Assembly (NCBI GenBank): GCA_037178625.1
Contig: CM074127.1
Span: 1,736,001 to 1,800,000 of the forward strand
Direction: 5' to 3'
Length of the DNA: 64,000 nt
Source: Skeletonema tropicum
Lineage: Eukaryota > Bacillariophyta > Thalassiosirophyceae > Thalassiosirales > Thalassiosiraceae
How positions within the stretch are numbered: the stretch's first letter is position 1; the number at the start of each line of letters is the position of its first letter. The position numbers and the translations under genes were made by a program. The notes under the pieces are model-generated. The model ran no database searches. It was given only the letters and a program-made list of their open reading frames with translations, and was not told where the DNA came from. Below, one piece after another: positions 2,001-30,234 of this stretch.

Positions 2001-2688
2001 TCATTCACATGTTTTACAAGCTCATTAGCAATGAACTGAGGGTCGCGCTTGTTGACTTTATTTGACATGTTCGTACCTTATCTCAAGATGTGCTGTTTTT
2101 TCGTGTTGCAGTATCCTTTACATACACTTTTTTATCGTTTTTTTATCATTGTCAATGTGCGAATTAGCTGTTTCTAGTGAATTATTTTTTCAGCATAGAT
2201 ACTTTTGTTGGTTTGAATTTCCATGGGAACCTTTATTATTGCCCTGACTGATTTCGGTTGTTACTGATTATTACTACGTACGTTATTTTCCATTCATCAT
2301 CGATAGATATTCATTGCATCACACTCAATTCCATTACCAATAAGCTTTTTTTCATATTATGAGCGTCTGCTATTGTCCAGTTAGTCTTAATCTCTTCATC
2401 ACAAATACAGGAATAGAGTTTTTGACACAGTTAAAAGCTTGCATGAATGAGTGGTTCGTTTGCTTATTTTGTGGAGGTCAGTACCGAGCGGCTTATCGTT
2501 TTCTTTAGATTATTCTTGAGAGCAAGATCAGTTTTTCTGGTTCATTCCTCATTCCGCGCCGATAAAAGTTCAGCACTTCATGTCCGTCATATCTTGTCTT
2601 GCTTCATACTATTTACCTCTACAATACCTATGTCCCCGTCAAATCACTGGCATTCCTTATCATCTAACCAGCCCACGACGATGAGTGC
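2001..2688. other. Intergenic, no gene seen
   Basis: AT-rich, T-tract-rich stretch between the satellite and the first gene. Short open frames here have no start context, domain or composition suggesting coding. It probably holds the promoter of the gene starting at 2689. Confidence 0.6.
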
Positions 2689-3962
2689 ATGATTATGATT
2701 CATCGGTTGTCAAAGTGTATTCCTCTCGTCGGCTTCATCAGAATTTTCGCTTCTTCAGCTGTCGCTGGAATTTTCCTATTCCTTCTTTACACCTGGACGC
2801 CTTCCTCATCATTCCAAACCGAATCAACCCTTTTCACACTATCATCCAATCATTTCAGCAATAAAAAGATCTTATCTCTTGCGTCACAATACTTTAGCGC
2901 CATTGACAACAACATGGGTGGGGGAGCTTCGCCTAATTCCGACTCTGATGTGCGGCATGTAAATGGCGCAGTATACAAACGAGCTTCGCTGCTTCTAAAT
3001 CCAACCTATCCTGTACAACCTTCATTTTCGTTTGGAAAATCAACTGAAGAGAACTATGGCGTCGACAACATGGAGTTTTATGGTCCGTTTAAATCAATTC
3101 GCGCGAGTCTTGATTATTCTTACCATGGAAATTATAGTCAGAGTAGACAAATCTTTCAAGATAGGATAGTGGAAAAATTGCTTGACGGGACGATCATCGA
3201 GGATGCTCACGGTAGAGGGGTTTGTAAAACGCCGAATGACCCATGGATTGTTTTCACGGCTGGTGTTATGGGAGCGGGGAAGAGTCATACACTCAAACAA
3301 TTGGCATCTAGGGGACTATTCCCTCTTCAATCTTACGTTGTCATCGACCCAGACGACATTCGTCAACATTTCCCAGAGTATGTCTTATATGCTCTGCAAT
3401 CACCCGAGCGCGCGGGAGAGCTTACTCACAAGGAGGCTGGCTATGTCACTGAAATTGTGACTGCAGCTGCACTACAGAGGGGTCACAATGTGTTGGTGGA
3501 TGGGTCTTTGTGGGATGCTGATTGGTATAAGGGGTATTTTGAGCAGCTGAAGAAATGCTATGGAGACTTAAGGATAGCAATTTTACATGTCACTGCTCCA
3601 AGGGAAGCAGTGTTTGAGAGAGCGAAGGTAAGAAGCGAGGTTAATTAACTATTTATCTCCTACCACTATACTGTGATCGCAACATTCACTCAACGCTTCA
3701 CACTATTTACATCTATTTGCAGCATCGTGCTAAGGTGACTGGGAGAGTAGTACCAATTGAAACGCTTGAATTGTCTCTGAAACATGTACCTGAATCAATA
3801 AAAATTCTGGCACCATTGGTAGATTACTTTTGTGAGCTGGATAACCCTCCCGATTCGGATGAAATTGTGCTTACAACTGAGGGAGTTACTTGGGATTCAT
3901 TTAGAGACACATGGGCGCAAACGTGTCCCCTTCCACAGAAGAGAATGGATTCATTATTGTAG
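2689..3962 (+). CDS. Membrane-anchored zeta-toxin-domain P-loop kinase-like protein
   Basis: Two exons, 2689-3627 and 3723-3962, with a 95-nt GTAAGA...TTGCAG intron in phase 0, give 392 aa. The N-terminus has a hydrophobic segment at about residues 10-37, so it is a signal anchor. A Walker A motif GVMGAGKSHT lies near residue 192, followed by IDPDDIRQHFPEY, a helical stretch, and a VDGSLWD segment. This is the order seen in the zeta-toxin/UDP-GlcNAc-kinase P-loop fold, PF06414. The exon junction restores the R-A-K-x-x-R-A-K...GR-VP region typical of the C-terminal part of these kinases. Such domains occur in eukaryotes without an antitoxin partner; no epsilon-like antitoxin gene is adjacent. 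The substrate is unknown. The start is the first ATG of the frame; an ATG at 2695 is also possible. Confidence 0.85.
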
Positions 3963-8273: not shown

Positions 8274-11200
8274 TCACTTAGAACACCTGCCTCGCCCATT
8301 AGCGCAGTCAATACAACAGGCATCACTCTCGTCATCAACAGCAAGCACTTGTCTTCTCTTACGGTAGAAGTCATGCAACACAGTGTCTCTGATTAGATTG
8401 CGGAAGAGATCCTCAAACTGCTTGTCAACACTGGTATCTTCAAGGTCAAAGAGAGGCGATTGCTCCAAGCTCACAGAGTTCTCACAAAATCGAATACAAA
8501 ATCTTACCCAAGCGGATACCTTTTCAAATTCGGCCGTCGAAGAGTGCTGTCGGAATTCAAGTGTAGTCTGCCTACCTTGAATCAAATTCTGCATGTTGAG
8601 TTTGTAATATCTCTGCCCTGTCGGGTTGACAATATGTGCGAGGTCACGAAGTGAACGGCATTTCGACAAAGACACCATTACCCCCTCTTTGCTTCTACCC
8701 AGCGCTTGCTTGGCCATCTCAAGATTGCTCATAAAGTAAGAGTTGGATTCATTACTCCCGCTTCTCCTTGATCGCGGCATTATGGAATCGATTGCGGCCT
8801 CATACTTCAAAAACTGTTGGAAAATCTTCACTAAGTCGGCCACGGAGTATCTTTCTACATCGACATGTACGTGAAAGCCCATACTTTTGTTCAACCTCAC
8901 ACTCGGAAAATGTTGCAATATGTGTTGGATACTTGATATGCCCGCTTCAGATCGAAGAATAGGACTCACAAGCTCGAACACATTGCAATTAGGGACAGAC
9001 GCATTGCATACAAGGCTGTTATCTGTCACAATCTTCCACCTGCTGGAGTTTTCTTTGCCCTCCTCCCAAGTCTTTGGAACTAAGATCCGGATACCGCTTG
9101 CTTTTAGTTCGTTGGCAATCATTTGTGGAGAAAGAAACGCTGATGTACTCATTTCTAACTCTACGCCATATCTCGCTTCATCACGCAATCGTGTCATTTT
9201 GATTTGTCGACTCTTGTGCGCATTTTGCTTCAGGCGAAAAACGTAGAATTGAGCATCATCTGTATGCATGTCGTCATCATCTGACTCATGAGGCCGATAA
9301 CGTGGAAAAATAGCACAATCAAATACTTCACTCCACTTAAGAACAAAGCCTGCATTCCGAGCAGAGCTCAAGACATTCCATCTTGAAAATTCTTTACCTT
9401 TCAAAGCAATGCCAACCTCGAAATTATCGCCCACCATTTTCGACTTGAGGTATAACGCAGCACTCATGAAGAATCCACGCATAAAGCGTTCGTTCTCTTC
9501 AGCACCAGCATTGCTACTAGCCCGAGGAAAGTTTACTGCAACACGATTGATCGTCTGACTATAACGCTGCAAATAAGCATTCGTGTGAAGAGTCGTCGCA
9601 GACAATTTTAGCGTCATTGCTAGCGCAATTCGAAGGGTTTCAAGAGATTGCTGAAAGCCACAACCTTGATCAAGCAACAGCAAGCTAGATGCGTGCTGAC
9701 GATACCACATCAATGGACCGCCATTGAATTTACCGTGTACGGGCGCAACAATTGCCTCTGCTTCATTACCATTGCCTGAATCATTGCCGTGAGAATAAAG
9801 GCACCTCGAATTTGTGCATCTGTCTTGAAACCTACACGGCGGCCTTGCAGCGTCATACGAATGAGCATTTCGACAATCGTCACCGAAGCTGCAGTTGCCA
9901 TTTAGGAAGTGTATACATGCATATCTCGTATCTTTGATCTTTCGTTGAGATAATGCCTTTTGCTGAAGTCCCACTAGAGTGTATGGCACATCTCTGCCGT
10001 TCATGCCATAAATGGATGAAAAAATGTCATACATGTCGACATCAAATCTTTTGTCGCTGTTCCAAACTGGCTCAAGATCCTGGCATTTGAGCCACTCGGG
10101 TGTGAGCTCCGGGTAATAAAGTGTATTCATGGCGAGCTCTACATACTGAGCTATTTGTTTCACGCTGCTCGGATTGATAAAGTGATCACGACACCAATTG
10201 CTGTGCGCCCTATCCATCTCAACTGTCCATTTTCCAACATTGAAGTCATAACAGCTGTCATCAGAATCATCACCGAAAAAGTGGCTGGGAAAGTTAATGA
10301 ATCCATTCGATCGGTGATCGAAATGCTCCATCATCGCAGACCTTCGAATATTACCCCAGTTTACATACCAAAAAAGGTAGGCAGCGAAATGTGCCACAGT
10401 CTGAGACTGAGGATCTTTTTCATCCACTTGAGGAAAGTAGCGAGAAAGATTGAGGCGATTCGAGTCACCAGCACCAAACGCATTAACGACTGGCTTTGGT
10501 GTCAGAGTTTTAATGGCAACCAACACCAGCGCCTCATGTAACATTCCACGCTTCGCTCCATAGGTGATAGCTTCTGCTTCTTCAACACTGAACGGGAGTG
10601 CTGATATAAGCTTCCCGTGATCAGTGAGAATTGTCCTTCGCTTTCTAGAGACAATGACTTGCCGGCACACCTCGATACTAACAAGGTACTCCAACGCATT
10701 TGCGACATTGTCTGCGGGCGGAGGATCTAAACACTTTCTCAATAACGTGGATGGATTCGACATTACCTTGTTCTTAGATGAAAGAAGCGAGAGGGCTTCA
10801 TCACGACACGATGCCACTTCTATTTGTGGCCTCTCAAATTTTTCCATGGTGTTATTGTAAAAATTTTCATGCACGAGACGAAACACTCTTCCGCTGCAAG
10901 TTCTACCTGTCCTTCCTCGCCTCTGATCGCAAATGGCTTGAGATGCAAAGGTTGTCATCGACTCATACTTGGACCTTTCAGGGACCCACGTTACCTCCAA
11001 TGCCCTGCAAGTATCTATGACGCAACTAACATTTGGTATCGTGATGCTGGAGTCCGCAATAGCTGATGCAAGCAATACCTTTCTCTGTTCATTACCATTA
11101 CGTCCTTTCATTGACTGAAGGCAGTCTTCAATGTCAATTGATGCGTGTAGCACACCTAGATCAAACTCGACAATTTCTTGTAGATAAAAATAGATCTGTT

Positions 11201-12109
11201 CAAGTTGACCTGAAACACAAGAGATTAGCAAATATGATAATGATACAGTTTGCGCAAATCACAGTATATTGTTCACTTACGATATGTCGGGGTGAAGATC
11301 AAGAAAATTTTGTCCTGCGCTTCAACATTGTGCAAATATTCTGCGAGCGAACGAATCAACTCTAATAGATTCTTCGATAAAAGCTTCCCCGATTCATTTG
11401 ATGTGAGCTCTCGAATAGGGTCTAATTTCATATCTGAACAGTACTCTTTAACCTCCTCATTGTAATCACCAGATCTGGCAAGCATCTTGATAATGCTTTC
11501 CAAGTAATACGTATGCACTCTGGAATAAAACATATCAATGTTGTTCGCAGTTTGAATGGTTATCGTATCGACGTACTCGCAACCTGGCACGCCGCTGAAG
11601 AAAGAAGTATATTTGTCATGGTTGAAGGTTGCGCTCATCAATATAAGACGAAGCTTACAACGTGGGTATGCCATCATGAATTCTTTGATGATAGTCAAAC
11701 ACAAATCACTCTCTGACGAACGCTCATGACACTCATCGATGAGGACGACTTTGTACCTAGTCAGCGCCTCGAGACCATTTCCTTTCAGTTCTTCCAACAG
11801 GATTCCCGCAGTTGCAAAAAGCAACCCAGTCTGACTGCTTGCTACTCTGTCCTGCCCAACATGATAGCCAACCTCCTCACCAAGGACACCTCCCCTCTGC
11901 TCGGCAACATGAGAGGAGACAGCCACAACCGCTAATCTTCTAGGCTGTGTGCAAAGTATTGGAGAGCCAAACCCATCCAAAAGAAGTTGTGGGACAATAG
12001 AACTCTTGCCGCAACCTGTCGGCCCAACGACGATGGTGAGCTTATTGTTCCTGACTTTGTCGAGAATACGGCTCTTGAGCGTGGAAGGAAAGGAATGTAG
12101 AGTATTCAT
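8274..12109 (-). CDS. DEAH-type RNA helicase / CCCH zinc finger / BMT5-like / amidoligase fusion protein
   Basis: The coding sequence is complement(join(8274..11209,11281..12109)), 1254 aa, with a 71-nt GTAAGT...TTTCAG intron that restores an Arg codon in helicase motif IV. Helicase: Walker A GPTGCGKS (29-36), DECH box (125-128), SAT (159-161), motif V SAIADSSITIPNVSCVID (325-342) and motif VI QRRGRTGR (372-379). Two CCCH fingers follow: C708-C716-C722-H726 and C735-C741-C746-H750. Residues about 780-920 resemble DUF2431/BMT5-type Rossmann methyltransferases (NFPR 836-839, RGFFMSAALYL near 854, FPRYRP 911-916), but the usual glycine-rich SAM motif is not intact. Residues about 955-1200 fit the putative amidoligase family PF12224: GVELE (958-962), W1001...D1006-x-S1008, FELVSP (1021-1026), GFHVHV (1054-1059), YYKLN (1144-1148) and EFRQHSST (1161-1168). 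All expected acidic and His ligands are present. The helicase plus CCCH part recalls plant CCCH-helicase proteins. The substrate is unknown. Confidence 0.9.
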
Positions 12110-27530: not shown

Positions 27531-30234
27531 ATGGCCGACGCAGAGCAAGCAACAAGCGGACGCACCATAGGAGACTGGACTGCCTTCCTAGACGATGAGA
27601 GTGGTACAAACATACTATTACAATGAAACTACGGGGGAAAGTCGATGGGATGCCCCCCCAGGCTTTGAGGATGCGAATGACAACGATCAAGATGCAGGGG
27701 ATGCGAGTGCATTGAGTAAAGATATCGATAGTCAAGAAGCACATAGCGATGATTATGACGGAATTACAAAATCTCCACAATTTAATGTGGGGGGTGACGC
27801 GGAGGATGACGATGATGGAATCACTCGATCGCCCCCAATGTATAATGAAGATGAAGCAGCAATCGAAGGTGGAACAGAAGAAGGAGGAGGAAAAGATGCT
27901 GAACAACAAGAAGAAGAAGTAGCCGTAGCCGACGGAGAAGAAATTGGCGGTGGATGGATAGCCTATCATGATGCCGAAGGTCGAGTGTATTACGCCAACA
28001 GTGAGACTGGAGAGACGCAGTGGGAAAGACCTGCTGTTGCTGCTGACGGTGAAGTTTCAAAGCAACCAGATGGGGAGGAGGGTGCAGTGGCCCATGACGA
28101 CGACGCGCAAGGAAGCGAAGACAAGGAAGAAGAACCAACCTTGGATGCAGCAACAGTAGCAGAGCAATTCCTCCAAGGGCAAGATGCCATCATGGAAGAC
28201 TCTGTATTGGACAATATTGCAACCCTAATCAACGAGTTGGGAAATGTGGCTGGAAAGAAGGCACAGCAGTACCTTGTTCAGGGATATCAGGGGGACACTG
28301 CCATGTGTGGACTGATGGGTTTATGGCTAGCAGAACTCAAATCATCGAGAGCAGCAGCGGTAGGGAAATCGCGACCTTCGGCGGCATCAAAGAATATTGC
28401 TCACGACAATAATGTATTTGAAGAGGGAGCTGATGCAGCACGTGATGTTGTAGAATCAGTGGTAAACCGGCTGGCTAGAGAACGATTTACAACCAATGGT
28501 GGAGATGCAATTATGAAGCTGACAAAGAAGCAAGCTGCTTTTGTTGATGAAATGATCAAGTCAGATCGTTGGAGAAAAATGCTTATTGATTTGTCGGCCA
28601 GCAACAAAGATAGTAAGCTGTTCATGTACTGTTTACAAACCATGTCCAATCTTGGACATCATCGTGAGATCGCAAATCGGATTGACCAGAGCGATTATTT
28701 TGGTGTCTTCAACTCGTTGCTCCGATCGGAACTATCAGTTGTGGGGAAGTTGGCAGTCGCTGGTTATGACGGATATAAAAAGGATGGTACCTCAGAAGGA
28801 AAAAGCTCAAATGAATCACTGACAAGTGGCCAAATTGAAACATTGACAGCAGATTTACGGCGAACATGTACTGCCACTTCATACACCTACCTGTACGCAA
28901 TGATAGTATTACAAGAGCTCATCAAAGATGCCCAAGAGGGTGAAGACGATTCACTTCAAAAAGCTTGTCAGAAATGGGAACGCCTCAGGGAAGAGCTTGA
29001 GGAAGAAATGATGAAGCCAGTTTCGACTGGGACAACATTTCAGAGAAAAAGGAGGATTGATGTGGCTCTTGCAATGAGTGATTTGGTCCAACGACAAAGG
29101 CGAAGGCTTGACCCAAGTTCAGATGATGCAATAAATCACGTAGACGTACCAAGCAATGTTGCTCAAAAGAATAATCTCGCTGATGCTCTAGACTCAGCCA
29201 TCGTTGCCTTGCTGACAAAGACCAGTCTTGGCAATCAAGTTGACAAAGACATGGCAGAAAATATATTGAAGTTTGCATACGGTGGTTCCACCGAAAGAAT
29301 AGGAGATCTACTCATCAAGCATCCATTTACAATCACTACACTATTGCATAATCTGTTTGGAGCAAAGAGAATTCGACAACTTGAAACAAGGCTAAAATGT
29401 GCTAGACTGGTTGCTTTGGCTGTGACAGCATCTGAAAGAGCTGTACGATCACAACAAGATGGTATCACTGTCAGCAATGAGGACGCATTATCTCAAATTG
29501 TTTTGAAAGGAAGTCAGTTATGTGAGCAAGTCGAAAACATGGTGAGCTTCACTGCTATAGATAGTGTTGAGGAAGGGCACGAAACTAGTGCCGGGAGACA
29601 GCTAAGTGCTCTTTGTATCAAATACCCTGTCATTGCGCAAGGAGCATTAATTTGGGCCAAAGGTCTTGCAAGCAACCCAGACTTTGTCACAACGGCGGCA
29701 TATCCAACTCTAGCACCATGTATTCTGTGTCTAGTGAGGATTATTACTCTCCATCACCCTCTTACAAGACCTGCTGCGCTGGAGTTGTCTATGATTTTCA
29801 TAGGTCACTCGAATAGTGACATCTCCCATCAAAAGATGGAATCCATCAAAGAACAATGTCTGCGGCTGATGCTCCTACTATCAGCCCAGGGTTTGTGTAT
29901 CGAGGTCATTTCAGCTGTACAAGACAAACTCCGAAAGAATGGGTCGTCCGAGCTGGATTCTGCGCTGATAAGATATTTTGTGTCGGGATTACTTGATACG
30001 GTACAACCTCCATTGACAGTGCCCTTTTGCAACTCATTCTTTGGGCTGTTACTCGAGAGGCAGTGCGTAGACGCTCTCAAGTCTCAACACTTTGAAAAAA
30101 GGAGACGTGACGAAATCATCCAGCTAATCAATCAGGTCGAAGGCCAGGGAAGTGAAGCAAGGTTCTGGTCTAATGTCCAGCAAATGTTATCCAATGTTAA
30201 ATCAGTATACTCTGCTGGTGAAGTACTAAAGTAA
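27531..30234 (+). CDS. NELF-C/D (TH1)-like protein with two N-terminal WW domains, one +1 frame break
   Basis: ATG 27531 starts a frame with the first half of a WW domain (WTAFLDDESG). The second half (TYYYNETTGESRWDAPPGF) continues in the +1 frame, which otherwise starts at ATG 27595. Skipping one base between 27592 and 27629 gives 900 aa. A second, intact WW domain lies at about residues 140-175 (GWIAYHDAEGRVYYANSETG...W). The rest aligns by eye with NELF-C/D: a GYQGDTAMCGLMGLWLAEL start, a YPVIAQGALIWAKG segment, and ALIRYFVSGLLDTVQPPLT near the end, where the human protein has the equivalent LIRYFV...LD...PP. NELF-C/D acts in RNA polymerase II promoter-proximal pausing. WW domains bind Pro-rich motifs, such as the Pol II CTD or splicing factors. 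The fusion is unusual. Confidence 0.8.

What the first reader, a model, noticed from the sequence alone, without database searches (positions are those of the whole stretch)
8274..12109. Single protein joining DEAH helicase, CCCH fingers, BMT5-like domain and an amidoligase
Seen: all helicase motifs, two CCCH fingers, a Rossmann/DUF2431-like region with degenerate SAM loop, and a C-terminal domain with the PF12224 amidoligase motifs (ExE, WxxxxDxS, ExxSP, HxH, ExR). Known: amidoligases of this fold make amide bonds, and in bacteria they sit in peptide-modification and tagging clusters; plant helicases with CCCH fingers exist. Inference: an RNA-bound enzyme that attaches an amino compound to a protein or nucleotide, perhaps a stalled nascent chain or viral RNP. 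I know of no described protein with this order.
Basis: partly seen in the sequence, partly recalled or inferred. Interest (0 to 1): 0.93.

Follow-up and report, generated by a model that had tools for sequence, protein, structure and literature searches.

The report
RNA helicase fused to an amidoligase
A diatom RNA helicase carries at its tail an intact-looking enzyme domain of the kind that makes amide bonds, a combination also found in related diatoms and possibly a way to tag proteins held on RNA.

Summary

The helicase-CCCH-BMT5 part is of the plant DExH8 type. Two trees fit one gain of the amidoligase, among diatoms, and at least one loss. Its nearest relatives are YEATS-like-amidoligase proteins. 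Seven putative metal/ATP residues are kept in 27 of 27 fused-type sequences, whereas four are changed in the only other amidoligase found in this genome. RING fingers have joined the same helicase at three positions in other lineages, and one YEATS-like amidoligase also has one. My best reading is an RNP-directed writer that forms an amide or isopeptide bond on an RNP protein. Chemistry is inferred; substrate unknown. The paper searches showed no described counterpart.

The parts
11281..12109 (-). exon 1 (residues 1-276 and first base of codon 277): helicase lobe 1
11210..11280 (-). predicted 71-nt spliceosomal intron, GTAAGT...TTTCAG
   Evidence: junction read through in P0002 and P0003
8274..11209 (-). 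exon 2 (rest of codon 277, residues 278-1254 and stop), within one open frame
11615..12070 (-). DEAD/DEAH lobe, residues 14-165: GPTGCGKS 29, TQPRR 54, DECH 125, SAT 159
10899..11183 (-). Helicase_C, residues 286-380, QRRGRTGR 372
9861..9917 (-). CCCH finger 1, residues 708-726 (CX7CX5CX3H)
9789..9836 (-). CCCH finger 2, residues 735-750 (CX5CX4CX3H)
9222..9710 (-). BMT5-like Rossmann domain, residues 777-939; SAM loop replaced (LLLLDQGCGF where GEGDFSF is usual)
8487..9179 (-). Amidoligase_2 domain, residues 954-1184
8277..8483 (-). helical extension and Cys-rich tail (CCIDCANGRGRC), residues 1186-1254, shared with many diatom YEATS-like amidoligases

Best explanation
It is a DExH8-type DEAH-box RNA helicase that, in an ancestor among the diatoms, gained the catalytic end of a YEATS-like amidoligase. 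Shown by sequence and predicted fold: one protein, intact helicase motifs, RNA-type zinc fingers, a methyltransferase-fold domain that has lost its SAM loop, and an amidoligase with every residue that is conserved family-wide. Inferred: the helicase and fingers dock on an RNP; the amidoligase, like other GS/GCL-fold ligases, uses ATP to activate a carboxylate as acyl-phosphate and joins it to an amine, making an amide or isopeptide bond on a protein of that RNP; the SAM-less methyltransferase fold serves as a binding or spacing module. It would do by amidation what other lineages may do with a RING finger on the same helicase.
Against: No substrate or product is known; the solved proteins of nearest fold are mostly small-molecule ligases. 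The fusion appears lost in a clade with Cyclotella atomus (P0045, P0046, P0072), so it is dispensable there. RING co-occurrence rests on few proteins: in a motif scan of 107 amidoligase sequences only P0020 and P0147 had one. Eight of ten other amidoligases scanned show no partner domain by Pfam. Prokaryote/phage neighbours gave no clue. The residue roles are recalled from glutamine synthetase; no coordinates were superposed.
Confidence: 0.45

Rival explanations
1. The amidoligase acts on RNA, not protein: the helicase and fingers present a nucleotide with a carboxylate side chain (such as acp3U or carboxymethyl-uridine types, recalled) and the enzyme amidates it or joins an amino acid.
Against: The nearest amidoligases carry a YEATS-like domain and, in P0147, RING, which point to proteins; the fusion was seen only in some diatoms, while such RNA modifications are widespread (recalled).
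Confidence: 0.18
2. The amidoligase makes a small amide metabolite and the fusion only fixes its location or regulates it by RNA binding.
For: GCL, YbdK and glutamine synthetase, its closest folds, are small-molecule ligases (recalled).
Against: Where eukaryotic relatives have a recognisable partner it is YEATS-like, RING or, below cut-off, a RanBP-type zinc ribbon (P0176), not a metabolic domain; but most have none recognisable.
Confidence: 0.15
3. The amidoligase part is a binding module without catalysis, like the neighbouring SAM-less BMT5-like domain.
For: The BMT5-like domain lacks the SAM loop in 16 of 17 fused rows (P0021 keeps a partial one), and the other amidoligase found in the genome is degenerate.
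Against: The seven putative catalytic residues are kept in 27 of 27 fused-type rows.
Confidence: 0.15
4. Annotation artefact: two neighbouring genes read as one.
For: None found.
Against: One 994-codon open frame spans the junction; helicase and amidoligase together in 9 of 33 homologues, two of them transcripts.
Confidence: 0.01

Closest known systems
Plant DExH8-type helicase (Cynara DExH8 P0127, Ceratodon P0120, Ceratopteris P0124; Arabidopsis At2g47680 recalled as its member)
   Same: DEAH helicase, CCCH fingers and, in P0120 and P0124, a BMT5-like domain in the same order
   Different: no amidoligase by Pfam in P0120 and P0124 or in the precomputed domains of P0127; SAM loop present in P0120 and P0124, not in P0127; 31-32% identity of these plant rows to the query P0023
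YEATS-like amidoligases (P0147, P0143, P0168 and others)
   Same: amidoligase and helical extension; Cys tail in 9 of 14 listed; nearest rows in the amidoligase tree
   Different: YEATS-like N-terminus instead of a helicase; P0147 adds RING-H2
Amidoligase_2 (PF12224) of bacteria and phages, phrog_2443
   Same: same domain, 24-36% identity, same conserved residues
   Different: shorter proteins without the helicase part; none of 11 neighbouring proteins scanned matched a helicase family
PafA/Dop pupylation enzymes
   Different: not the nearest fold; no Pup-like partner was looked for
Spindle-E, DHX29 and DHX36
   Same: nearest helicases of solved structure by profile
   Different: the profile matched only their helicase region; their other domains were not compared

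Membership tests
Amidoligase_2 (PF12224) | profile score above the curated cut-off over the full domain | tested here: met
   97 bits against 22, profile 2-244 of 245
Amidoligase_2 (PF12224) | conserved ExE, E..SP, HxH, ExR residues | tested here: met
   all present in the window protein and kept in 27 of 27 fused-type rows
Amidoligase_2 (PF12224) | GS/GCL carboxylate-amine ligase fold | tested here: met
Amidoligase_2 (PF12224) | ATP-dependent amide bond formation | not testable with these tools
   needs an enzyme assay
BMT5-like (PF10354) methyltransferase | profile score above cut-off | tested here: met
   38.2 bits against 24.7, but only profile 58-166 of 168
BMT5-like (PF10354) methyltransferase | SAM-binding loop of the GEGDFSF type | tested here: not met
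   LLLLDQGCGF in the window; loop found in 1 of 17 fused rows (P0019) against 43 of 47 rows without amidoligase
DExH8-type helicase | DEAH helicase motifs | tested here: met
   GPTGCGKS, DECH, SAT, QRRGRTGR
DExH8-type helicase | CCCH pair followed by BMT5-like domain | tested here: met
   same order in P0120 and P0124
DExH8-type helicase | orthology to the plant protein | tested here: inconclusive
   only such gene found in its genome, searched with exon 2; the tree is midpoint-rooted with long plant branches
PafA/Dop | nearest match among solved folds, and a Pup-like substrate | tested here: inconclusive
RING E3 ubiquitin ligase | RING finger | tested here: not met
   none in the window protein by Pfam or by motif scan

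The most novel reading that the evidence does not exclude
A eukaryotic, ubiquitin-independent tagging system on RNA: the helicase finds a faulty or foreign RNP and its amidoligase conjugates an amino compound or peptide to a protein of that RNP, a function that other lineages may serve by a RING finger fused to the same helicase. In effect a pupylation-like ligase aimed by an RNA helicase.
Probability: 0.25. Interest if true: 0.88.

Novelty: new variant of a known kind. Interest (0 to 1): 0.62.

Why it matters
Amidoligases of the GS/GCL fold are best known from bacteria and small-molecule metabolism (recalled). One fused to an RNA helicase in eukaryotes, with its putative catalytic residues kept while the adjoining methyltransferase lost its SAM loop, makes a testable case for protein (or RNA) amidation at RNPs. 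RING fingers on the same helicase in other lineages hint at what the DExH8 family does; in the library searched DExH8 is named in 1 paper and At2g47680 in 3, seen here as listings only.

Tried and rejected
Gene-fusion artefact: rejected by the 994-codon frame and by full-length homologues. Chance motif match: rejected by 97 bits and fold. A second copy in the genome: not found with exon 2 as query; the other 17 of 18 matches are one amidoligase paralogue and 16 places of 24-41% identity that cover only the helicase lobe (query 14-244); such searches score only the best candidates. Sequence search of the PDB with the amidoligase: the window domain gave one unconvincing row, Eps1p E 0.24; the profile gave none. 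Prokaryote/phage neighbourhood: 10 neighbours by Pfam gave one clear match (HEAT_2) and two below cut-off (Arm-DNA-bind_5, RES); 7 by PHROGs, 1 of them new, gave two families of unknown function; none explains the enzyme. A single-sequence fold of P0147 was too poor to use (pLDDT 36), so the YEATS-like assignment rests on profiles. Literature: listings (30 of 81 papers listed; 15 of 8,887; 20 of 22; none); passages seen in PMC4431377 and, in its reference list only, PMC7824862; the 2009 amidoligase survey by Iyer and colleagues is not held and was seen only as a reference.

Full report
Observation. The gene lies on the minus strand. Splicing a predicted 71-nt GTAAGT...TTTCAG intron (11280-11210) joins exon 1 (12109-11281) to exon 2 (11209-8274) into 1254 aa. 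The intron sits between the two helicase lobes. Helicase_C, CCCH fingers, BMT5-like domain, amidoligase and tail are all in one uninterrupted frame of 994 codons. Pfam finds DEAD 36.3, Helicase_C 31.9, BMT5-like 38.2 and Amidoligase_2 97.0 bits, all above cut-off; the CCCH fingers are below theirs but have correct Cys/His spacing. In the genome, searched without regard to introns, it is the stronger of two amidoligase matches and eighth of nine BMT5-like matches. No second helicase-CCCH-BMT5 gene was found with exon 2 as query.

Conservation. Of 33 homologues of residues 700-1254, 22 (P0001-P0022, P0001 being the window's own frame) join the amidoligase to parts of this backbone. Nine of these also have the helicase N-lobe by Pfam: P0002, P0003, P0008, P0010, P0013, P0019-P0022. 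Both CCCH fingers are present by spacing in 9 of 9; BMT5-like is called by Pfam in 7 of 9, while in P0021 and P0022 that region aligns but is not called. P0010 and P0022 are MMETSP transcripts; P0013 is Thalassiosira sp., P0015 T. exigua. The other 11 of 33 are 5 backbone proteins without amidoligase and 6 amidoligases without helicase. A Chaetoceros tenuissimus protein, P0057, is a near-copy of P0020 whose gene model lacks most of the amidoligase. In 27 fused-type rows (some are fragments that show only CCCH/BMT5 plus amidoligase), E960, E962, E1022, H1056, H1058, E1161 and R1163 are all kept. In 32 prokaryote/phage and 46 other eukaryote rows they are kept except for two gaps each at 960 and 962 and one D at 960. 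The paralogue L002 has D, T, S and R at 960, 962, 1022 and 1058. Three partial domains were left out of this count, among them P0171, which lacks several of these motifs. The roles of the residues as metal and ATP ligands are recalled from glutamine synthetase. The SAM loop is found in 1 of 17 amidoligase-bearing tree rows (P0019) and in 43 of 47 rows without amidoligase; the four exceptions are P0045, P0046, P0072 and P0127.

History. In a helicase-region tree of 64 rows, the 17 amidoligase rows all lie in one 23-row clade (100/100) that also holds two clades without it (P0023/P0040/P0044 and P0045/P0046/P0072); at least two changes are forced. In the amidoligase-domain tree, 12 helicase-linked domains form one clade (100/99) nested among YEATS-like amidoligases (98/92), apart from 10 prokaryote/phage rows. 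Together these fit one fusion, then at least one loss. Loss in the clade with Cyclotella atomus (P0046) looks real: its three members end shortly after the BMT5 domain in similar tails, and they share the lost SAM loop. The roots are midpoints only, and P0127 and P0130 have long branches. The members of the 23-row clade that bear names (P0013, P0015, P0046) are diatoms; most rows are unnamed. Pennate rows named in the searches (Seminavis P0079, Nitzschia P0098 and P0100, Thalassionema P0099) lack the amidoligase.

Donor family. Of 14 YEATS-like amidoligases printed, 10 N-termini were aligned; at E up to 0.1, 8 of 10 match PF03366 (best 0.0011) and 7 of 10 pYEATS (best 7.3e-6). The PDB gives AF-9/ENL weakly (E 0.04-0.5), below an unrelated PQQ protein at E 0.013. 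Nine of the 14 share the CCxxC...C tail with the window protein. P0147, an MMETSP transcript, adds RING-H2 (E 1.8e-12). Eight of ten amidoligases scanned show no partner domain in Pfam, so the family's context is mostly unread.

RING on the same helicase. P0020 has RING after the amidoligase (28.7 bits, cut-off 27.3); P0100 (Nitzschia inconspicua) and P0117 have it at the C-terminus after BMT5; P0122 and P0126 have it between helicase and CCCH. The placements suggest separate acquisitions. In a motif scan of 107 amidoligase sequences only P0020 and P0147 showed RING. Whether any of these fingers ubiquitinates is not known.

Mechanism. Shown: anatomy, predicted fold, conservation, transcript-level fusion in relatives. 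Inferred from the superfamily: ATP activates a carboxylate, an amine attacks, an amide forms. Inferred from the RING and YEATS-like associations: the target is a protein. Inferred from the helicase and fingers (nearest solved helicases Spindle-E, DHX29, DHX36): the target sits on an RNP. RNA amidation, a metabolite and a non-catalytic role remain open.

Novelty. The paper listings seen (several capped) showed no paper on this protein. PF12224 is named in two papers, both on phages, and no paper holds both 'amidoligase' and 'YEATS'. Only the open-licence library was searched. Each domain is of a known family and the backbone is DExH8-type, so this is a new variant of a known kind.

Noticed in passing
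L002 (G000:C14:1118677-1119237): Second amidoligase found in the genome: YEATS-like N-terminus and an amidoligase with four of seven putative catalytic residues changed, a likely pseudoenzyme; P0171 (Cyclotella cryptica) looks alike.
   Followed up: partly
P0147 (MMETSP transcript, 524 aa): YEATS-like domain, intact-looking amidoligase, Cys tail and RING-H2 in one protein, worth its own study.
   Followed up: partly
P0139 (626 aa): YEATS-like amidoligase whose C-terminus, by eye, resembles the N-terminus of stand-alone amidoligases such as P0140.
   Followed up: no
P0057 (Chaetoceros tenuissimus CTEN210_01777): Public gene model lacks most of the amidoligase present in its near-copy P0020, probably a wrong gene model.
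   Followed up: partly
window 2668-3648 (+): Frame with a Zeta_toxin-type P-loop kinase domain (71 bits).
   Followed up: no
window 27592-30234 (+): TH1 (NELF-C/D type) protein that also carries WW domains.
   Followed up: no
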